22,622 nucleotides of DNA from a virus, in IMG/VR virus record IMGVR_UViG_3300010885_029617, positions 1 to 22,622 of that record. One strand, given 5' to 3'. This document shows, piece after piece, positions 4,114 through 22,246 of this stretch. The notes below the pieces were generated by a model, which was not told the DNA's origin, did no database searches, and saw only the letters and a list, made by a program, of their open reading frames with translations. Each line of letters opens with the position of its first letter. Positions within the stretch are counted from its first letter, which is position 1. The translations under genes and the position numbers were made by a program.

Positions 4114-4824
4114 TCACTGTGCCACCACCGAGTTAGCCTTAATGATCTGCCCCATCGCGGGAAACGTCCACTTGCCACCCTTGCGCGTCCGGTAGCCAGC
4201 CGCGTTCAGCGCGTCGGCCATCTCCCGGTAGCTTTCACCCCGGCTGTGCATGTCGAGGATAACGCGGATCGTGTGCTGTTCGGCTTCGTCCTCAAGCAAT
4301 GGCATCCGCGTTTTCTTCCCATCAATCACGGGCCGTTCCTGTGAGCGGTAGCCGTATGGCGCGGGGCCAGCGGGGCACCCGGACTGTTTGATCTGCTGAA
4401 GCGCAAGGCGGGTTCGCTCCCCAATCAGTTCGCGCTCCATTGCGGCAAACACGGTGATGATCCCGATCATGGCGCGGCCCATGATGGTGCCCATGTCGAA
4501 GCCCTCATCAATTGAGACGAGCCGAACGCCGTGCTTTTCAAACAGCGAGATCAGGTTTCCGCCGTCAACGACATTGCGGGTGATGCGGTCCATGCGCTTG
4601 ACGATAACGGCATCCACCTGACGCGCCTTGACCATCTCCAGAACACGCTGGGCACCGGGGCGGTCGAGATCCTTTGCGGACTCCCCGGCGTCGGTGATGA
4701 TGTCGATCAGCGGGTGCCCAAGCAACGCGGCCTGAAGTTTGATCTTCTCAATCTGGGCGTCGATGGAAGCCCCGGAGTCGGCCTGAGCCTGACTCGAAAC
4801 GCGACAATATCCGATTAAGCGCAT
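4114..4824 (-). CDS. Serine recombinase (resolvase/invertase family)
   Basis: This 236-residue protein cuts and rejoins DNA through a serine nucleophile. The N-terminal resolvase domain shows YCRVSSQAQADSG with the likely catalytic Ser10, the helix IDAQIEKIKLQAALLG, the Arg-rich KRMDRITRN segment and AMERELIGERTRLAL. A shortened recombinase region follows (PYGYRS, then RGESYREMADALNAAGYRTRKGGKW). Large serine integrases are 450-600 residues, so this is a small form. The start MRLIGYCR at 4824 is preferred over one 16 codons upstream. It lies on the opposite strand between the early cluster and the packaging genes, a place where it could control excision or invert a segment, but no target sites were identified. 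Confidence 0.9.
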   Translation of the reverse strand: MRLIGYCRVSSQAQADSGASIDAQIEKIKLQAALLGHPLIDIITDAGESAKDLDRPGAQRVLEMVKARQVDAVIVKRMDRITRNVVDGGNLISLFEKHGVRLVSIDEGFDMGTIMGRAMIGIITVFAAMERELIGERTRLALQQIKQSGCPAGPAPYGYRSQERPVIDGKKTRMPLLEDEAEQHTIRVILDMHSRGESYREMADALNAAGYRTRKGGKWTFPAMGQIIKANSVVAQ

Positions 4825-4850
4825 ACGTTTTCCATCTGTGGCTTTTTGCT

Positions 4851-4876
4851 GTCCATGACCACATCTTAACATGGAC
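4851..4876. promoter_or_regulatory. Inverted repeat in front of the recombinase gene
   Basis: GTCCATG (4851-4857) and CATGGAC (4870-4876) are perfect inverted repeats with a 12-base spacer. On the minus strand the spacer carries TTAAGAT, a possible -10 box for the recombinase gene. The element is therefore placed to be an operator or a recombinase binding site. Function is inferred from position only. Confidence 0.5.
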
Positions 4877-5068: not shown

Positions 5069-5425
5069 ATGACTACGCAAGCCCCAAATCTACTGGAAAG
5101 GCTCCCGGCGTTGCCGATCCGCGTTCAACGCGAGGACCGCACGACGTACATGGAAGACAACCTTGAAGAGGTGCTGCGTATGGTCAAGGCTGGCGTGGTT
5201 GAAGGCGTAGGCCCACGGTCTGGGCGCATCGATATCCTGCGTATCACCGTCACCCACGAAATTGCGGTGGAGCGCATGAAGGCCGTCCCGATGGACAAAC
5301 TTCCCGAAGAGTCGCCGGGTTCGATTACGTCGATGGCATCCCGCGAAGTCTATCGCGAGGTTGTTGGCGACTCGGGACATTGGTGCTGGGCATTTGTGAA
5401 ACGCGACCGAACCGCGTTTGCCTAA
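5069..5425 (+). CDS. Hypothetical protein preceding the large terminase
   Basis: This protein has 118 residues from ATG 5069. The frame is open back to ATG 4946 and ATG 4973, but 4946 lies before the expected transcript start and the translation between 4973 and 5069 looks non-coding. No candidate has a good Shine-Dalgarno sequence, so the start is uncertain. The sequence includes an acidic helix (MEDNLEEVLRMVKAGVVEGV), a strand segment RIDILRITVTHEIAVERM and a final HWCWAFVKRD. Its place three bases before the terminase would suit a small terminase, but no HTH is obvious and I do not assign it. Confidence 0.6.
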   Translation: MTTQAPNLLERLPALPIRVQREDRTTYMEDNLEEVLRMVKAGVVEGVGPRSGRIDILRITVTHEIAVERMKAVPMDKLPEESPGSITSMASREVYREVVGDSGHWCWAFVKRDRTAFA

Positions 5426-5428
5426 CCC

Positions 5429-8400
5429 ATGAGCCTTGCTGGTTTTGACATCGCGGGGCTGGATCTTGGCGAGATCAGCCGCGAAATCGAGCGGCAGCAG
5501 GAAAAGCGGCGCTACGACTGGAAGTTGCAGGCAAGGCCAGAACAATTACCGCCTGCTGGAGAATGGCGATTCTGGCTTATAATGGCTGGGCGCGGGTGGG
5601 GTAAGACCAGGACCATCGCCGAGTATTTGCGAATGCTCGCATTTGCTGGCAAGCATCGGCGTATCGCTATTCTTGGGGCAACCGCAGCGGACGTTCGGGA
5701 CGTTATTGTTGAAGGCGATTCGGGGATCATTGCAATTTCACCACCCGATTTCATGCCGCTGTACGAACCGTCAAAGCGGCAACTTACTTGGCCAAATGGA
5801 GTAATTGCCAAGACGTATTCTGCTGATGAGCCTGACCGTTTGAGAGGTCCACAACATCATGCGGCAGTTGTAGATGAACTTGCGGCCTACGAATACCCAG
5901 AATCATTTACGCAGTTGAAGTTTGGCCTGCGATTGGGCAATGACGTTCGTTGCGTGATTGGGACGACTCCGAAACCGTGCGCCGCAATTCGGGAGCTGGT
6001 AAAGCAGTCCAAAGAGGGTAATGGGCGGGTGGTCATCACTCGCGGTTCCACCTACGACAACAGGAAGAACCTGGCCCCAGAGTTTTTCACTGAAATCATT
6101 CGGCAGTACGAGGGCACCCGCCTTGGCCGTCAGGAACTTGAAGGCGAACTGCTGGAAGACACCCCCGGTGCGTTATGGAATACGCTACTGATTGACCGAA
6201 CGCGGGTTAAGCGGGAAGACCTTCCCCCAATGGCCCGAATTGTGGTGGCGATTGACCCGTCAGTAACGTCAAACGCGAGATCCGATGAATGCGGCATTGC
6301 CGTAGTCGGAAAGGGCGTTAACGGGGACGGGTACATGCTGGAAGACCTTTCCGGCGTCATGACCCCGAACGAATGGGCGATGGCGGCGATTTCGGCCTAC
6401 CATCGGCATTCGGCAGATGTGATCGTTGGCGAAACGAACAACGGTGGCGATCTGGTCGGAAACACGATTCTTGCGCTGGACCCCGGCGTCCCGTTCCGCA
6501 AGGTAACGGCTTCGCGGGGCAAACATCTCCGGGCTGAACCGATTTCGCTGTTGTCGGAACAGGGGCGGTTTCATCTGGTCGGGAATTTTCCGAAACTTGA
6601 AGAGCAGATGTGTTCCATGTCGAGTGATGGCTACTCTGGTCATGGTTCGCCAGATAGGTGTTTTGTTGCTGGCACGCTGATTCGTACTGAATACGGCGAT
6701 ATCCCTATCGAAAATGTTCTTGTGGGGGATTTAGTCCATACACGGGCAGGGCTTCGGCCTGTGATCGCCGCAGGGCTAACCGAAAAAGCTGCGATGGTCA
6801 GTACCGTCAGATTTGTCGGCGGGTCTTTAACGGGGACAGGAAACCATCCAGTTTTTGTTGAAAATATTGGCTATGTTTCGTTGAGTGGCTTGCGCCGGGA
6901 TGATAAACTGGTTACATGGCCGCAAGCGAAAAAGTCACTATCGACGGGTTCAGCTTTTACCGATCCCTGGAATCAAAAAGTCCGTACTTTGTTGCAAGTC
7001 GGGCAACCAGGATTGCAAGTGGCCACCACAGCTTGCATCGGTACATATGGGCCAAGAAGTACGGCGAAATTCCGTCAGGATTTGTCATCCACCATAAAGA
7101 CAAAGACGCCAGGAATAACGACGTTTCCAATCTGGAGTGCATCAGCACAAAGAAACACGGCGGAATACATGGCCCGGACCGGATCGAGCAGTGCCGGGTC
7201 AATATCGCCAAGGCTCGGATCGGGGCCAATAAGTGGCATTCCTCGGCGGAAGGGCGTGCGTGGCATAGCCTGCAAAGCATTGAAGGATGGAAAGGAAAGG
7301 CCCCGACCATCAAAAGCGCCTGCGTCGTTTGTGGCGCTGAGTGCCTGGCCTTTCTCCGCGCCCGAAGGTTCTGTTCCGCTTTATGTAAAGGGCGGTACGG
7401 CGAAACAATCCGCAAGGATTTTGAGCAGCGGGAATGCCCCGCATGCCACGTCTCGTTCAAGGTTAAGCGGTCATCTAAGCAAAAGACATGCTCGCGGGCG
7501 TGTGAGGTCAGTATGCGCAGCAGGAACCGCCCCGGTTTACAACCTGACGGTCGCTGATGCTCACGAGTATTACGCCAATGGCGTATTAGTCCATAACTGT
7601 GATGCGATGGTTTGGGGTGCCAGTGAAGTCATGCTGGGCGGCACGACGGTCCAGATGTTCCCCGATTTCCGAGCAGCACATCGCGGTAACGGCGAACCAG
7701 CGCAAGCGGTTCACGTTGTCGATATGGGCGATTTGAAAGACTGGTGGACCCGCTGGATTTCGGTTACGATGGGCAGTTCAAGCGCGGCGCATTGGTGGTG
7801 CCGGGAACCAGCACAACCGGGCAAGGTCGGGTCACGGTCGCGGATCTATCGCGAGTTTCTGGCGCAGGACATGACGCCTGAAGAGTTCGGAGCGCAGATA
7901 GCCCAACGCAGTCAGCAGGAAGCCAAGATATCCCGCATCCTGCCCGTGTGGCTCACTGAGAGCGCGTTCAGTGGCGTTCAGGGCAAGTCAGTAGCGGCAG
8001 CGGTTGCTGAGGGCATACAGCGGTCGCTGGGGCAGCACAAAGCGTTCCTGTTCGTTCACGACGATGAAGAGCGCGGCATAGTTGATCCGCAGCAGCGATG
8101 GCGTGCATTTAGCGCACGTATGGACCGGATGCCGACCGGGTTCCTGTCGGTGCAGCCGATCAAGGGCAAGGATTCGGACGGGTGGGATGTTGTGCGAGAA
8201 ATGCTTCGCTGGCGTCCAGCCGCAAGCGGCAGGCTTGAAGGGCCGGATTGGGATTACGCCCGTCAGTTGGTGCTGACGGATTACCCGGCCTACGAACGCT
8301 ACATATCTGAATTCAAGGAACCGGATGTTGAGGTTCTTCCCGAACTCCTGATCTCCAATCAGTGCAAGGGGGTGATCCAGGCCATGAGCGGTGCGGTGCG

Positions 8401-8650
8401 AACGAATGATGATTCGGCGCTGGCAATGGGCGGCGGTTCGTTCGTATTGCAGTCTTTGAGAATAGGCGCGTTGGCGTCTCGTGAAGATGCTTCGCGAGAA
8501 CCAATGCAAGAGTTTGTAGGCCGCAAGCTTGCGGCGTTGCCTTTGGGGGCTTCGGGGACAGCGCGGCACATGGCGGCAATGAAAGCCGAACAGGACTGGG
8601 GCGGTCAGCACGGCATGGGGCCGATCAGTTTTTCAAGGAAGCGCAAATGA
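5429..8650 (+). CDS. terL: Terminase large subunit interrupted by an intein, with extra C-terminal domain
   Basis: The terminase motor packages DNA into the capsid and cuts it. The 1073-residue frame gives a host protein of about 760 residues after removal of a 313-residue intein (residues 411-723). ATPase motifs: Walker A AGRGWGKT (53-60), Walker B AAVVDE (145-150), coupling motif GTTPKP (178-183). Nuclease motifs: IDPS (Asp276), VGETNN (Glu335), and PDR/CDAMVWG (Asp409, Asp725), split by the intein at Arg410/Cys724. A normal enzyme would end about 15 residues later. Instead some 335 residues follow, including RWISVTMGSSSAAHWW and YREFLAQDMTPEEFGAQI, which resemble a second terminase nuclease domain lacking the usual aspartates. 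No clear Shine-Dalgarno sequence is seen. The stop overlaps the next ATG. Confidence 0.93.
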   Translation: MSLAGFDIAGLDLGEISREIERQQEKRRYDWKLQARPEQLPPAGEWRFWLIMAGRGWGKTRTIAEYLRMLAFAGKHRRIAILGATAADVRDVIVEGDSGIIAISPPDFMPLYEPSKRQLTWPNGVIAKTYSADEPDRLRGPQHHAAVVDELAAYEYPESFTQLKFGLRLGNDVRCVIGTTPKPCAAIRELVKQSKEGNGRVVITRGSTYDNRKNLAPEFFTEIIRQYEGTRLGRQELEGELLEDTPGALWNTLLIDRTRVKREDLPPMARIVVAIDPSVTSNARSDECGIAVVGKGVNGDGYMLEDLSGVMTPNEWAMAAISAYHRHSADVIVGETNNGGDLVGNTILALDPGVPFRKVTASRGKHLRAEPISLLSEQGRFHLVGNFPKLEEQMCSMSSDGYSGHGSPDRCFVAGTLIRTEYGDIPIENVLVGDLVHTRAGLRPVIAAGLTEKAAMVSTVRFVGGSLTGTGNHPVFVENIGYVSLSGLRRDDKLVTWPQAKKSLSTGSAFTDPWNQKVRTLLQVGQPGLQVATTACIGTYGPRSTAKFRQDLSSTIKTKTPGITTFPIWSASAQRNTAEYMARTGSSSAGSISPRLGSGPISGIPRRKGVRGIACKALKDGKERPRPSKAPASFVALSAWPFSAPEGSVPLYVKGGTAKQSARILSSGNAPHATSRSRLSGHLSKRHARGRVRSVCAAGTAPVYNLTVADAHEYYANGVLVHNCDAMVWGASEVMLGGTTVQMFPDFRAAHRGNGEPAQAVHVVDMGDLKDWWTRWISVTMGSSSAAHWWCREPAQPGKVGSRSRIYREFLAQDMTPEEFGAQIAQRSQQEAKISRILPVWLTESAFSGVQGKSVAAAVAEGIQRSLGQHKAFLFVHDDEERGIVDPQQRWRAFSARMDRMPTGFLSVQPIKGKDSDGWDVVREMLRWRPAASGRLEGPDWDYARQLVLTDYPAYERYISEFKEPDVEVLPELLISNQCKGVIQAMSGAVRTNDDSALAMGGGSFVLQSLRIGALASREDASREPMQEFVGRKLAALPLGASGTARHMAAMKAEQDWGGQHGMGPISFSRKRK
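6659..7597 (+). other. Intein within the terminase nuclease motif
   Basis: This is a protein-splicing element of 313 codons. It begins with Cys (CFVAGTLIRTEYGDIPIENVL, block A). Block B is GTGNHPVFV with the splicing His. It ends with VYNLTVADAHEYYANGVLVHN (blocks F and G) with the penultimate His and terminal Asn, followed by Cys+1 of the host protein. All residues needed for a class 1 intein are visible. Only about 86 N-terminal and 34 C-terminal residues look like intein; the roughly 190 residues between them are Ser/Arg/Gly/Thr-rich and are the off-frame reading of an HNH gene. The insertion site, inside the DR-x-DA nuclease motif, is a typical conserved-site choice for inteins. Confidence 0.93.
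6916..7557 (+). CDS. HNH homing endonuclease nested in the intein in the -1 frame
   Basis: This 213-residue protein reads one base ahead of the intein frame, with ATG 6916 and TGA 7555-7557. It has a VTIDGFSFYR opening, then SLHRYIWAKKYGEIPSGF, the catalytic IHHKDKDARNN (His59, His60) and SNLECISTKKHGG, the layout of free-standing HNH endonucleases. The C-terminal half has several Cys pairs (CVVCGAEC, CSALC, CPAC, CSRAC), probably two zinc-binding modules. The last 15 or so codons overlap the C-terminal splicing block. No Shine-Dalgarno sequence precedes the ATG. Expression could come from internal initiation or a -1 slip on GAAAAAG (6928-6934). The likely role is homing of the intein into uninterrupted terminase genes. 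Confidence 0.9.
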   Translation: MAASEKVTIDGFSFYRSLESKSPYFVASRATRIASGHHSLHRYIWAKKYGEIPSGFVIHHKDKDARNNDVSNLECISTKKHGGIHGPDRIEQCRVNIAKARIGANKWHSSAEGRAWHSLQSIEGWKGKAPTIKSACVVCGAECLAFLRARRFCSALCKGRYGETIRKDFEQRECPACHVSFKVKRSSKQKTCSRACEVSMRSRNRPGLQPDGR

Positions 8651-8979
8651 CATTTGACATCATCATCGCGGCGATGACCGCAAAGCATGGAATCAACCCC
8701 GAATGGGGCGGATGCCGTCCGGGCATTCTGGCTAACGCATCGCAGGATTACACGTTTCTGGTGGGGCATAGACCAATCGGCTTTAGCGCAAAGGAAGTTG
8801 AGTTAGCAATTGCGGAATGGATCAACCCTGCCGTAGCGGTTGACGCCGCAGTTTCCGGCAACACTGAGTTTCAAGTAGAAGCAGAGCCAGAACTTGCCGT
8901 GTTTACTCTTGATGGGCCAACACAGGTCGAAGCGGTGATTGTGACCCAAACAACCAAAAAGAAAGGCGGCAAAAAGTGA
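8647..8979 (+). CDS. Hypothetical protein downstream of terminase
   Basis: This 110-residue protein starts in an ATGA overlap with the terminase stop. It has an N-terminal region MTFDIIIAAMTAKHG and a hydrophobic middle, then an acidic Val/Glu-rich segment and a basic tail (TTKKKGGKK). It is unrecognised. Coupling to the terminase suggests a packaging or head-assembly accessory role. Confidence 0.7.
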   Translation: MTFDIIIAAMTAKHGINPEWGGCRPGILANASQDYTFLVGHRPIGFSAKEVELAIAEWINPAVAVDAAVSGNTEFQVEAEPELAVFTLDGPTQVEAVIVTQTTKKKGGKK

Positions 8980-9625: not shown

Positions 9626-11982
9626 CGCCATCTGCCGAAACACCGCCAACGCCCGAGGAGCAACTGCTTCAGCGACTGAAGCAACCGCTTATGGAAATGC
9701 TGGCGAGTGACGTTGACGCTGAATCTGCCCCTGAGAAGATTTATCAGTACAACCTTGCACAGCGCAATTACCTGATGTTCAGGGGGATGCAGTTCGTTGC
9801 CCCAGTCATGCGCGACGGCGTTTCTTCCTACGCTCCAATTGGCAGCAGCTACGGTCCGTTTGGCGCAGGCGGCGATGACGACGGGGCTTACGACTACACC
9901 CGTAACATTTTCCGTGGGTACGGGAATAAGTTCATTGCTGTACTTGGCCAGCGTGCTCCAAACGTCATTGCGCTGGCGGACGACCCCGACGATGACAAAA
10001 GCGTTCGGGCGTGCCGAACAGCTAACGAGTGCAACGCGATTCTTAATTCGTGGTGGGACGTTGATGTCAAAAACATCGAAGTTGCCACCTACTCCTGGAT
10101 TACGGGGCCAGCGTACCTGTACACTCCGTGGAACGCTGACGGCCTGATGTACGGCTTCCGCGAGGAGCCGACCTACTCGGTTGAACAGAAACCTATGGGG
10201 GAGCCTGGGTATCGGTGTATTCAGTGCGGTGCAATTTCCCCGCAACCAGGTAAGTGCCAGCAATGCGGCGCTCCGCTTGGGCCTGAGTCGCTGGTTGAGC
10301 CAGAGATGGCGGACGTTCCTGTTCAGTCAGGCGTGCAGAAGTACGCCAATGGCCGCGTTGAATGCTATGTGCTTGATTGCACGATGATAACAACGCCCTT
10401 CTTCATTAAGAGCGACCTGCGGTTTTGCCCTTGGCTGGAATACAAGTACGAAGAGAACCGCCAAACGCTTATCAGCCTGTATCCAAAACTAAGAGAAAAG
10501 GGCGATGACTTTGGAACGCCTAATACCGGAGTTGCAGGGGACCGTGGGCGACAAGTCCGCGACTCGATCATCTCCCCGACCGGCGCACCGATGCGGACGA
10601 CTGCCAAGAACCGATGGGCGTTTGCCCGCACATGGATTCAGGCCAATCAGTACTCTGGCGTCAAGAGCGAAGAGATTCGCAAAGTACTTGAAGAAAATTT
10701 TCCCGATGGCATCAAGATCACCCGCGTCAACGGTGAGATTATGCAGATCGAGAACGAACGACTGGATCACGTTTGGGCTGCGATTCAGCCGTCAGCTTCA
10801 GCTACGCTAAACGCTGACCCCGTAGGTCAGGATCTTGTGTCAGCGCAACTGCTGACCAACCACGCGCTAAACATTGCGGCAGAAACTATTGAGCGCGGCA
10901 ACCCTCTGACGTTTGTTGATCCCCGCGTTGTGAACCTGACCGCTTGGAACAAACAGAAGTCCCGGCCCAATCAGGTTATCCCCACGCTGGCCGCTGTGGG
11001 CGCGACACTGGCCGATGCGTTCCACCAGACGCAGCCGTCCCGCTTTAGCGAGCAGATGGAGCCGTGGATGGCTTCCGTCGAAGCTGGCGCAGTGCAGGAC
11101 GTAGGCACCCAGCCTCAGATCTTTGGCGGCGGTAATGCGTCAACGGCCCGTGAAGCTGAAATCAACAAGAACGCGGCCATGATGCAGTTGGGGATCATCT
11201 GGACGTTCATCCGTAAAGGGTGGGAACGCGCCAAGATGAATGGCGTTCGCCAGCTCATCAAGTACGGACCGGCGCAGATTCGAGAAGGCCGCAACAGCGC
11301 AGACCTGGACGAACTGACGGCTGGTGACTGGCACTTTGAAGCGAACGAAGCTATCCCTACAACGTGGGGGCAGCGCCGCGACTTCCTGATGTTCATGCTG
11401 GGGCAACCGGAACAAGTTCAGCAGTCTTGGGGCATAACGCGCCCTGAGAACATTGCATCGAACAAGGAATTGATGGGGATGGAAGGCTGGTATACACCCG
11501 GCCTTGATGATGCCGACAAGGTGCATGACACCATCCAGAAACTTTTGCAGGCGGCTCCGATTGAGCAGCAGCAGCCAGATGGGTCAATGCAGTTGATGCC
11601 ATCTATCCCCGCTGACACGTTTGAGGATAACCCGGAAACGGTGGTTCAGCTTATTCAGGGATGGGCGCAGAAAGCAAGCCTGTCGGGTGGTATTCGAGAG
11701 ACGATGCCGGATGCTTACGCCAATGTCATCGCGTATGGCATGCAGTATAAGAAAATGCTGGAGCCTCCTGCACCGCCCCCAACGCCGATTACTCCCAAAG
11801 TCTCGGTATCAGTGAGTTCAAAGGATCTTGATCCAAATCAGACGATGGCTGTTTTGAAAGACGCCAACATCGAAGTGCCTCCGCCACAGCGGCCTGTGCT
11901 TCCGGTGATGGCCGACCGGGCCGTGCGTGAAACAGCCCAGCCGCCCGTTGCGCCTGCCGTTTTCGATGGCCGTATTCAATAG
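9622..11982 (+). CDS. Portal protein with inserted zinc ribbon
   Basis: This 786-residue protein forms the dodecameric ring through which DNA enters the head. The assignment rests on size, position after terminase, and portal-like segments: YDYTRNIFRGYGNKFIAVLG near residue 100, an acid-rich DDPDDDKS region, long helices around 390-440, and GNASTAREAEINKNAAMMQL with FIRKGWERAKMNGVRQLIKY toward the C-terminus. Unusually, residues 199-215 carry C-x2-C-x9-C-x2-C, a zinc ribbon inserted in the body. The last 65 codons lie opposite the minus-strand HNH gene. The Pro-rich C-terminus is probably flexible. It starts by ATGA overlap with the coiled-coil gene. Confidence 0.85.
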   Translation: MTPSAETPPTPEEQLLQRLKQPLMEMLASDVDAESAPEKIYQYNLAQRNYLMFRGMQFVAPVMRDGVSSYAPIGSSYGPFGAGGDDDGAYDYTRNIFRGYGNKFIAVLGQRAPNVIALADDPDDDKSVRACRTANECNAILNSWWDVDVKNIEVATYSWITGPAYLYTPWNADGLMYGFREEPTYSVEQKPMGEPGYRCIQCGAISPQPGKCQQCGAPLGPESLVEPEMADVPVQSGVQKYANGRVECYVLDCTMITTPFFIKSDLRFCPWLEYKYEENRQTLISLYPKLREKGDDFGTPNTGVAGDRGRQVRDSIISPTGAPMRTTAKNRWAFARTWIQANQYSGVKSEEIRKVLEENFPDGIKITRVNGEIMQIENERLDHVWAAIQPSASATLNADPVGQDLVSAQLLTNHALNIAAETIERGNPLTFVDPRVVNLTAWNKQKSRPNQVIPTLAAVGATLADAFHQTQPSRFSEQMEPWMASVEAGAVQDVGTQPQIFGGGNASTAREAEINKNAAMMQLGIIWTFIRKGWERAKMNGVRQLIKYGPAQIREGRNSADLDELTAGDWHFEANEAIPTTWGQRRDFLMFMLGQPEQVQQSWGITRPENIASNKELMGMEGWYTPGLDDADKVHDTIQKLLQAAPIEQQQPDGSMQLMPSIPADTFEDNPETVVQLIQGWAQKASLSGGIRETMPDAYANVIAYGMQYKKMLEPPAPPPTPITPKVSVSVSSKDLDPNQTMAVLKDANIEVPPPQRPVLPVMADRAVRETAQPPVAPAVFDGRIQ

Positions 11983-12427
11983 CGCAGGTACGGCAAATTC
12001 TGTTGAAGCGATTAGGCTTCCCTGAGATTGGCTTTACTGTAGTGTTCTCGGGAGAGTACTCGTGGCCTTGCGGGCAATGGGTTTTGTCGCGAAAATAAGC
12101 GCCGCCGTTGCCTCGCCGAACGTTTTCCGCCCGCGTTACAGGCTCAAGGTGTTTTGGATTTACGCATGATCGGACCCTGCAAAGGTGATCGATATGTAGC
12201 CCATCCGGTATCTCGCCAACGAATAGTTCATAGGATGCGCGATGTGCCAGTTTGCTTTTCCCTGGCCTCGCAAAAGATCCGTAGCCGTTGTATCCGGGGT
12301 ATTTGGGGAACGGTGATTGCTGGATTGATCCAGTCCAAAGCCAGCACCCTGAATTTGGTTCGGGCGACACCTTCGCCATGAATCGGTCAAGTAGTAGCGG
12401 CGACTGTTTAAGATATTGGTTAGGCAT
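11789..12427 (-). CDS. HNH homing endonuclease, antisense, after portal
   Basis: This 212-residue protein starts MPNQYLKQ at 12427, placed by AAGGAGG six bases upstream; a longer frame from 12475 runs through the leader hairpin and is rejected. The opening FMAKVSPEPNSGCWLWTG is typical of phage HNH proteins. The catalytic core is KLAHRASYELFVGEIPDGLHIDHLCRVRSCVNPKHLEPV, with the DH-x-C...CVNPxHLE signature. Later CPQGHEY and CRTC form a zinc module. The C-terminal 65 codons overlap the portal gene on the other strand; the recognisable HNH part ends near residue 162, so most of the overlap is an extension. It is likely a free-standing homing endonuclease inserted between portal and scaffold genes. 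Confidence 0.9.
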   Translation of the reverse strand: MPNQYLKQSPLLLDRFMAKVSPEPNSGCWLWTGSIQQSPFPKYPGYNGYGSFARPGKSKLAHRASYELFVGEIPDGLHIDHLCRVRSCVNPKHLEPVTRAENVRRGNGGAYFRDKTHCPQGHEYSPENTTVKPISGKPNRFNRICRTCAIEYGHRKRQAQRAAGLFHARPGRPSPEAQAAVAEALRCWRLSKQPSSDLDQDPLNSLIPRLWE

Positions 12428-12496
12428 GTGATCCTCCTTAGATCGCATTGCTTGGGCCGCACAGTGGTTGCACACTGCGTGGCCTTTTCTATTTTA
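12428..12496 (-). promoter_or_regulatory. HNH gene leader: -10 box, hairpin and Shine-Dalgarno
   Basis: Reading the minus strand from 12496: TG-G-TAAAAT (extended -10 form), then AGGCC, a 12-pair stem with one mismatch and one G-T pair, the loop TGCAAC, GGCCC, a short GCAA-containing linker, AAGGAGG and the start codon. The same arrangement and nearly the same spacing occur before the HNH gene at 21743-22246. It is probably a structured 5' leader controlling expression of the endonuclease. Confidence 0.6.
12455..12495 (+). terminator. Intrinsic-terminator-like hairpin after portal
   Basis: GGCC (12455) to GGCC (12484) folds into a roughly 12-pair stem with a six-base loop, followed directly by TTTTCTATTTT. 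On the plus strand this is a good rho-independent terminator between portal and scaffold genes. It is the same DNA as the leader hairpin of the minus-strand HNH gene. Confidence 0.6.
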
Positions 12497-21742: not shown

Positions 21743-22246
21743 TCAGATATGCTTCCACCATTTACGCAATATGATGGATGAAATATGGGCTTGACTCACA
21801 CCAAACATGGCCCCAATCCGCCGTTGCGTCATGCCCGGATAGAGAGATCTGATTTCGATGATCTCTCTATCCGTGAGCCTACTGAAACTCAGGGCCTCGC
21901 CGCTAGTTTTTTGGCATCGCCCTTTCTCTTTTTTATCCAGCGCATTGGTCAGCGCAGTTCCTAAGAATAGATGGGATGGCCGGAAGCATGGAGGATTATC
22001 ACACCGATGAAGAACGCAAAGCCTGTCAGGGATAGGGCCTACTGCGGCCTCGTATGCTGCCCTATGAACAAGGGAACGGTGGCCCGGTCCTCCAGATTTG
22101 GATGGCACGCATATTCTCCCGTACGTTCCGACTCCGACTCCTGCCTTGTTTTTGCCGGCTGGCCATTCCCAGCACTCATCATTATGATCACGTGGATCGG
22201 AAAGCAACTTCAAAAGCAGCTTATAACTGGTACCCTTAGATTGCAT
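21743..22246 (-). CDS. HNH homing endonuclease with C-terminal HTH, antisense
   Basis: This 167-residue protein starts at 22246, eight bases after AGGAGG. The opening DHNDECWEWPAGKNKAGVGV is of the same family style as the HNH at 11789-12427. The core is SLVHRAAYEAAVGPIPDRL, VLHRCDNPPCFRPSHLFLGT, the LHxCDNPxC...HLxxGT form of HNH, followed by NALDKKEKGR. The C-terminal 45 residues (LTDREIIEIRSLYPGMTQRR, IGAMFGVSQAHISSI) are a resolvase-type helix-turn-helix, probably for target recognition. It ends one base after the upstream gene's stop, without overlap. It is a free-standing mobile endonuclease placed between two tail genes. Confidence 0.9.
   Translation of the reverse strand: MQSKGTSYKLLLKLLSDPRDHNDECWEWPAGKNKAGVGVGTYGRICVPSKSGGPGHRSLVHRAAYEAAVGPIPDRLCVLHRCDNPPCFRPSHLFLGTALTNALDKKEKGRCQKTSGEALSFSRLTDREIIEIRSLYPGMTQRRIGAMFGVSQAHISSIILRKWWKHI

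What the first reader, a model, noticed from the sequence alone, without database searches (positions are those of the whole stretch)
6659..7597. Dual-coding homing cassette: a complete HNH gene in the -1 frame inside an intact intein frame
The terminase intein has every splicing residue (Cys1, block-B His, penultimate His, Asn, Cys+1). Instead of an in-frame endonuclease domain it contains a full HNH gene (6916-7557) with its own ATG and TGA, one base out of phase. The intein frame is still open through about 190 codons that read as Ser/Arg/Gly-rich filler. So one DNA stretch encodes a splicing protein linker and a separate nuclease. I know of in-frame endonuclease domains and split inteins, but not of this nested off-frame arrangement; whether it has been described needs a literature check. 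It would free the endonuclease from the splicing fold and let a free-standing HNH colonise a mini-intein, provided the off-frame linker has no stops.
Basis: partly seen in the sequence, partly recalled or inferred. Interest (0 to 1): 0.92.

Follow-up and report, generated by a model that had tools for sequence, protein, structure and literature searches.

The report
Endonuclease gene hidden inside an intein
A phage packaging gene carries a self-removing protein segment (an intein) whose DNA also encodes, one base out of step, a complete DNA-cutting enzyme; the same two-in-one layout recurs in well over a hundred database sequences from very different phages, and it looks like a widespread, almost unstudied way for inteins to spread.

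Summary
A 313-aa intein (6659-7597) interrupts terL (5429-8650) at its nuclease motif. Its linker is overprinted by a complete HNH gene (6916-7557) in the -1 frame. This is not an artefact or a one-off: about 70 HNH-seeded loci and 69 of 80 inteins found by their C-terminus alone carry the same nested HNH, always in the same phase and never in frame, including in named phages (Tetrasphaera TJE1, Acinetobacter Highwayman). Cys1, Asn and Cys/Ser+1 are kept throughout. Expected stops in the intein frame are absent (0 vs 317; unrelated frame 1221 vs 1210). Substitutions follow intein codons in the splicing halves and switch to HNH codons inside the overlap. AlphaFold gives a Hint fold with a 183-residue disordered linker, and a well-folded HNH. 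A 98%-identical terL with an exact empty site shows recent mobility. Relatives show HNH decay, mini-inteins, free HNHs beside intein-less terL, and split-intein versions. Best reading: a mobile intein whose endonuclease gene is nested off-frame and expressed independently. Splicing, HNH expression and cleavage are inferred. Precedents: an out-of-frame 'intein-encoded' HNH noted in brucellaphage terL (2015), and the non-intein ShiLan element (2025). New variant of a known kind.

The parts
5429..8650 (+). terL (terminase large subunit) gene, one open frame: N-extein 5429-6658, intein, C-extein 7598-8647, stop 8648-8650
   Evidence: Terminase_6N E=1.3e-23, Terminase_6C 2.4e-9; PHROG terminase large subunit
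6659..7597 (+). intein, 313 aa, inserted at the TerL nuclease-domain motif SPDR|CDAMVW
   Evidence: Hint_2 E=2.6e-7, TIGR01443 intein C-terminus E=1.5e-5; Foldseek best gp41-1 intein TMt 0.86; exact empty site in L124
6659..6916 (+). N-terminal half of the splicing (Hint) domain: Cys1, block A, block B TGTGNH
   Evidence: AlphaFold pLDDT 87-98; Cys1 56/56 and 76/76 in relatives
6916..7557 (+). nested HNH endonuclease gene, -1 frame relative to terL, 213 aa: HNH_3 domain plus two Cys4 zinc-finger-like motifs
   Evidence: HNH_3 E=6.9e-16; PHROG 15471 E=2.8e-28; AlphaFold pLDDT 93.9; family constrained as a protein
6932..7480 (+). intein-frame reading of the overlap: stop-free, disordered linker (intein residues 92-274)
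   Evidence: pLDDT below about 50 and no secondary structure; 0 stops vs 6.3 expected
6896..6915 (+). region before the HNH start: no Shine-Dalgarno; extended -10-like TGATAAACT ending 6 nt before the ATG; TGA and TAA stops in the HNH frame 3-4 codons upstream
   Evidence: the -10 match of this one locus is not individually significant (p=0.21)
7481..7597 (+). C-terminal half of the splicing domain, ending HN; its first part overlaps the last HNH codons
   Evidence: pLDDT 95-98 from about residue 280; overlap of HNH 3' end with the last-26-residue block in 55 of 57 relatives

Best explanation
This is a mobile intein in which the homing endonuclease is a separate gene overprinted, out of frame, on the intein's linker. 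Ribosomes reading terL make a precursor whose Hint domain (two halves joined by a 183-residue disordered linker) splices itself out and restores TerL (inferred). Ribosomes that initiate at the internal ATG make a free 213-aa HNH protein (independent initiation inferred from stops 3-4 codons upstream and from conserved start positions in relatives). The HNH cuts intein-less terL alleles at the nuclease-motif codons, and repair copies intein plus HNH into them (inferred from the exact empty allele, the divergent tract next to the insertion and the homing-cycle range of relatives). Shown computationally: both frames conserved, each with its own constraint; same phase everywhere; splicing residues invariant; HNH can decay while the intein frame stays open.
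For: Recurrence at one offset: 64 loci, about 10 more in bacterial and archaeal genome assemblies, 69 of 80 inteins found by C-terminus only, none in frame. Splicing residues: Cys1 and Asn 56/56 and 76/76, +1 Cys/Ser always. Stops in the intein frame 0 vs 317 expected, other frame 1221 vs 1210, non-nested homologues 168 vs 156. Frame of constraint switches: host codon positions 1/2/3 changed 134/106/269 in the N-intein, 230/575/282 in the overlap (fast site = HNH position 3), 41/26/89 in the C-intein. HNH identity above filler identity in the diverged pairs, e.g. 94 vs 80%, 75 vs 50%, 68 vs 34%. Structures. Empty site with 224 identical nt downstream and a divergent tract of roughly 190 nt upstream. 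Decay series L165, L171, L188, L192, L193, L198 and 7 mini-inteins. No intron family in Rfam.
Against: No experiment shows splicing, HNH expression or cleavage. The 0-stop count is partly by construction, because loci were classed as nested when open; the C-terminus-seeded census (76 of 76 scorable with both halves in one ORF) is the fairer test. One relative (L098) has a frame break between the intein halves. The window HNH has no Shine-Dalgarno. Mobility of this element rests on one empty allele, seen in two contigs. HNH distance tracks terL (r=0.61) more than the intein (r=0.39), so intein and HNH are not always one inherited unit.
Confidence: 0.92

Rival explanations
1. The HNH is made as a fusion by programmed -1 ribosomal frameshifting from the terL/N-intein frame, not by independent initiation.
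For: The HNH is always in the -1 frame, as a -1 shift would need; TJE1 has a long open HNH frame upstream.
Against: In the window the HNH frame has TGA and TAA 3-4 codons before the ATG, and the open stretch upstream is at most 10 codons in 34 of 63 loci. Many loci have a Shine-Dalgarno, or a -10-like box 6 nt before the start. The constant phase has another explanation: this phase meets about 5 potential stops per gene, the other off-frame about 19.
Confidence: 0.05
2. The HNH frame is a fossil or accidental ORF: the intein is the only functional product and the stretch is neutral filler.
For: About 13 of 69 relatives carry truncated, remnant or atypical HNH.
Against: Catalytic His/Asn and eight Cys conserved; substitutions concentrate at HNH codon position 3; pLDDT 93.9; 56 of 69 keep a full-length HNH.
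Confidence: 0.02
3. The open intein frame is irrelevant: the gene is really a fractured terL joined by trans-splicing, or an RNA intron, and the contiguous frame is chance or assembly error.
For: Fractured relatives with split inteins and the same HNH exist.
Against: Contiguous frames in more than 130 loci; fractured and free homologues show stops at the expected rate; no intron family; AlphaFold joins both halves into a full Hint fold.
Confidence: 0.02
4. The HNH is a TerL packaging partner (Kala-type terminase-associated HNH) kept for packaging rather than for homing.
For: Free relatives lie next to terL, terS or portal; HNH distance tracks terL (r=0.61); brucellaphage authors suggested such a link (PMC4422536).
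Against: Empty allele, HNH decay with terL intact, nearest solved sequence is the homing enzyme I-HmuI, disjunct distribution.
Confidence: 0.1

Closest known systems
[quoted passage not shown] 2015, PMC4422536)
   Same: HNH gene overlapping the middle of terL, out of frame, attributed to an intein
   Different: A passing remark in a genome comparison; splicing residues, selection, structure and distribution not analysed there. Their R63L change, said to be silent in terL, implies the other phase if taken literally (my inference). The records were not in the collections held here, so not checked.
ShiLan domain (Arsenault, Gosselin, Gogarten 2025, PMC11855218)
   Same: Off-frame HNH with zinc fingers inside a phage gene, no stops in the host frame, homing-like distribution
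   Different: Inserted in a DNA methylase; the authors found no intein or intron splicing domain and think it stays in the protein. Here a full Hint domain surrounds the HNH.
Fractured genes with split inteins and a free-standing endonuclease between the halves (Dassa et al. 2009; paper not held, from memory and citations)
   Same: Independent endonuclease gene at the endonuclease position of a gp41-1-like intein; split relatives with this very HNH family found here
   Different: Here the intein is one continuous chain and the endonuclease is overprinted on it.
Canonical large inteins with in-frame LAGLIDADG or HNH domain (Vibrio phage 1.238.A terL appears to carry one upstream)
   Same: Splicing blocks, insertion at an active-site motif, endonuclease in the conserved insertion loop (PMC6801210 for that loop)
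   Different: Endonuclease is in frame and part of the intein chain; here it is off-frame and separate.
I-HmuI (PDB 1u3e), HNH homing endonuclease
   Same: HNH domain similar in sequence (E=0.0012)
   Different: Carried by a phage group I intron (from memory), not an intein; structural match weak.

Membership tests
Class 1 intein (self-splicing) | Cys/Ser at position 1, block-B TxxH, penultimate His, terminal Asn, Cys/Ser/Thr +1 | tested here: met
   for the window; 56/56 Cys1 and Asn in relatives, penultimate residue not always His
Class 1 intein (self-splicing) | Hint fold | tested here: met
   (gp41-1 TMt 0.86)
Class 1 intein (self-splicing) | protein splicing | not testable with these tools
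   needs an expression assay
Canonical large intein | endonuclease domain in the intein reading frame | tested here: not met
   no nuclease in the intein frame; HNH at offset 2
Mini-intein | no endonuclease, usually under about 200 aa | tested here: not met
   313 aa with a 183-aa linker carrying the HNH gene
Split intein / fractured gene | N and C halves on separate ORFs | tested here: not met
   one open frame 5429-8650; the feature is true of relatives such as L029, L034, L047, L049, L053, L060, L062
ShiLan-type off-frame HNH insertion | off-frame HNH with open host frame | tested here: met
ShiLan-type off-frame HNH insertion | no splicing element around the HNH | tested here: not met
   complete intein blocks and Hint fold
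HNH homing endonuclease | conserved HNH residues | tested here: met
   HNH_3 E=6.9e-16; His59, His60, Asn68, Asn72, His81 invariant
HNH homing endonuclease | cleaves the element-free allele | not testable with these tools
   an empty allele exists
Group I/II intron | ribozyme fold around the insertion | tested here: not met
   no intron family in 5400-8700

The most novel reading that the evidence does not exclude
Off-frame nesting is the main architecture of a large class of phage TerL inteins and the evolutionary bridge between free-standing HNH genes and split inteins. In members without a Shine-Dalgarno the HNH is expressed from an internal promoter written into the splicing-domain codons (extended -10 box 6 nt before the ATG), giving a leaderless mRNA.
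Probability: 0.3. Interest if true: 0.88.

Novelty: new variant of a known kind. Interest (0 to 1): 0.77.

Why it matters
Inteins are thought to carry endonucleases as in-frame domains or, when split, beside a free gene. A common third design, with the endonuclease overprinted off-frame, separates the evolution of splicing and homing: the linker can drift freely as long as it has no stops, and the HNH can decay without touching splicing. It provides more than a hundred natural replicates of gene overprinting with a clear control frame, a plausible route to split inteins, and natural inteins predicted to tolerate about 180 disordered linker residues, which may interest protein engineers. Such genes are hidden from annotation because only the long terL frame is called (for example in TJE1 and Highwayman).

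Tried and rejected
Rfam scan for introns: nothing. DNA-level search of phage genomes: no match. N-intein alignment was too diverse for a collection scan, so the C-terminal block was used instead. Programmed frameshifting considered and judged unlikely. Shine-Dalgarno as the general start signal: only 47% of nested starts are at or below -5 kcal/mol against 20% of control codons, hence the -10 test, which is post hoc and on related sequences. Foldseek of the HNH gave no significant hit. Brucellaphage records are not in the held collections, so that precedent rests on the paper's text. Dassa et al. 2009 is not held.

Full report
What is there. terL runs 5429-8650 in one frame and matches terminase profiles. 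An intein of 313 aa starts at Cys 6659 and ends at Asn 7595-7597, followed by Cys+1. Inside it, ATG 6916 to TGA 7555-7557 encodes a 213-aa HNH protein (HNH_3 E=6.9e-16). The HNH's first base is the third base of a terL codon, so the HNH lies in the -1 frame.

It is not chance. When the HNH codons are resampled synonymously, the intein frame should contain 6.3 stops; it has none, and none of 500 resamplings was stop-free. Over 64 nested relatives (a few near-duplicates included) the sum is 0 observed against 317 expected, while the remaining frame shows 1221 against 1210 and non-nested relatives show 168 against 156 in the same phase. The zero is partly by construction, because these loci were classed as nested when open. 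A search using only the C-terminal intein block avoids this: of 80 inteins, 76 have both halves in one ORF, 69 of those carry an HNH or its remnant at the same off-frame phase, 7 are mini-inteins, 4 others are cut by contig ends (and also carry the HNH), and none has the HNH in frame.

It recurs in named phages and in cellular genome assemblies. tblastn of the HNH against phage records and reading frames in those records show the same layout in Tetrasphaera phage TJE1, Acinetobacter phage Highwayman, Rhodobacteraceae phage LS06-2018-MD07 and a human-gut phage; IMG/VR adds dozens. Contigs of Parabacteroides, Bacteroides, Thermoplasmatales, Nitrospiraceae, Opitutae and Patescibacteria assemblies carry it too, probably as prophages or phage contigs. 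Hosts are TerL of at least two Pfam families (Terminase_3 and Terminase_6), invaded within a few residues of the nuclease-domain motif.

Two codes, two constraints. In nine pairs of related nested loci, substitutions follow intein codons in the N-half (134/106/269 at positions 1/2/3), switch to the HNH rhythm in the overlap (230/575/282 in intein phase, so the fast site is HNH position 3), and switch back in the C-half (41/26/89). HNH identity exceeds filler identity once pairs have diverged, e.g. 94 vs 80%, 75 vs 50%, 68 vs 34%. The filler is therefore constrained mainly to lack stops.

Structure. AlphaFold gives the intein a confident Hint fold for residues 1-90 and about 278-313 and a disordered linker between. 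Its best PDB match is the gp41-1 intein (TMt 0.86), a split intein known from fractured genes (from memory). The HNH folds with mean pLDDT 93.9, with invariant HNH residues and two Cys4 motifs; its nearest solved relative by sequence is I-HmuI (E=0.0012).

Mobility. L124 and L125 hold a nearly identical phage region with terL lacking the intein: SPDR|LDAMVW against SPDR|CDAMVW, with 224 identical bases downstream and identity falling from about 97% to 57-60% over roughly 190 nt upstream of the site. This is what co-conversion beside a homing event leaves (inference). Elsewhere, L027 and L077 share inteins (59%) and HNHs (53%) in terL genes only 21% alike.

The homing cycle is visible. 56 of 69 census inteins have a full HNH; others have internal deletions (L171, L198, L165) or short remnants (L188, L192, L193), always with the intein frame open and splicing residues intact, and seven have none. 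Relatives of the HNH also occur free beside terL, terS or portal, and between the halves of split TerL inteins (cultured examples Vibrio phage 1.238.A and, with a remnant HNH, Brochothrix phage BL3). In 10 of 13 split cases the C-half keeps the nested phase relative to the HNH, which hints that split forms came from nested ones. The HNH tree mixes the three states (18 changes, weak support), so direction is open.

Expression. In the window the HNH frame has stops 3-4 codons before the ATG, so the HNH needs its own start. Relatives fall into two groups: some have a Shine-Dalgarno; those without show a -10-like box, mostly 6 nt before the start, stronger than synonymous recoding predicts (Wilcoxon p=5.5e-5 for SD-less loci, 0.13 for SD loci). 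This suggests leaderless internal transcripts, but the test was post hoc and the loci are related; the window alone is not significant (p=0.21).

Why this phase. In this phase a stop needs T at HNH codon position 2, i.e. hydrophobic codons, so a zinc-finger HNH has about 5 possible stops to lose; the other off-frame has about 19. The constant phase may reflect this, common descent, or both.

Prior knowledge. Searches of open-access papers found two direct precedents: a remark on an out-of-frame intein-encoded HNH in brucellaphage terL (PMC4422536), and the ShiLan element, which is off-frame but not an intein (PMC11855218). Most subscription papers are not in the library. So the layout is not unheard of, but its breadth, phase, dual constraint, decay series and relation to split inteins seem undescribed.

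What is inferred, not shown: protein splicing, HNH translation, cleavage specificity and the direction of evolution.

Noticed in passing
L029, L034, L047, L049, L053, L060, L062, L093, L099, L100, L102, L109; L128 (Vibrio phage 1.238.A); L129 (Brochothrix phage BL3): TerL genes fractured into N-intein and C-intein ORFs with the same HNH family (a remnant in BL3) between them: split inteins at the same TerL motif.
   Followed up: partly
L043 1-1311, L048 138-815, L045 2504-4612, L019 2-1581: Free HNH genes directly downstream of intein-less terL (terL not visible in L048, where the contig starts); in L043 and L048 the bases before the HNH start read LDTMRYTV / LDATRYAV, like the TerL target motif, as if a copy of the target had been carried along.
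   Followed up: no
window 5539-6108 against L124: Mosaic terL: the ATPase part differs (about 60% identity) between two phages that are 93-100% identical on both sides.
   Followed up: no
window 7598-8650: C-extein continues about 350 aa beyond the intein, unusually long; it may hold a second RNase H-like or other domain.
   Followed up: no
window 11789-12475 (-) and 21743-22246 (-): Two further HNH-like genes on the minus strand beside structural genes of the plus strand (judged from the translations only).
   Followed up: no
window 4114-4872 (-): Serine recombinase (resolvase-like) gene on the minus strand just upstream of the terL region (judged from the translation only).
   Followed up: no
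L128 3-2519: The same Vibrio phage terL appears to hold a second, in-frame LAGLIDADG-like intein near the ATPase motif, so both designs meet in one gene.
   Followed up: no
L098 3709-4691: Nested locus in which the N and C intein halves are in different frames: a sequencing indel or a broken intein.
   Followed up: partly
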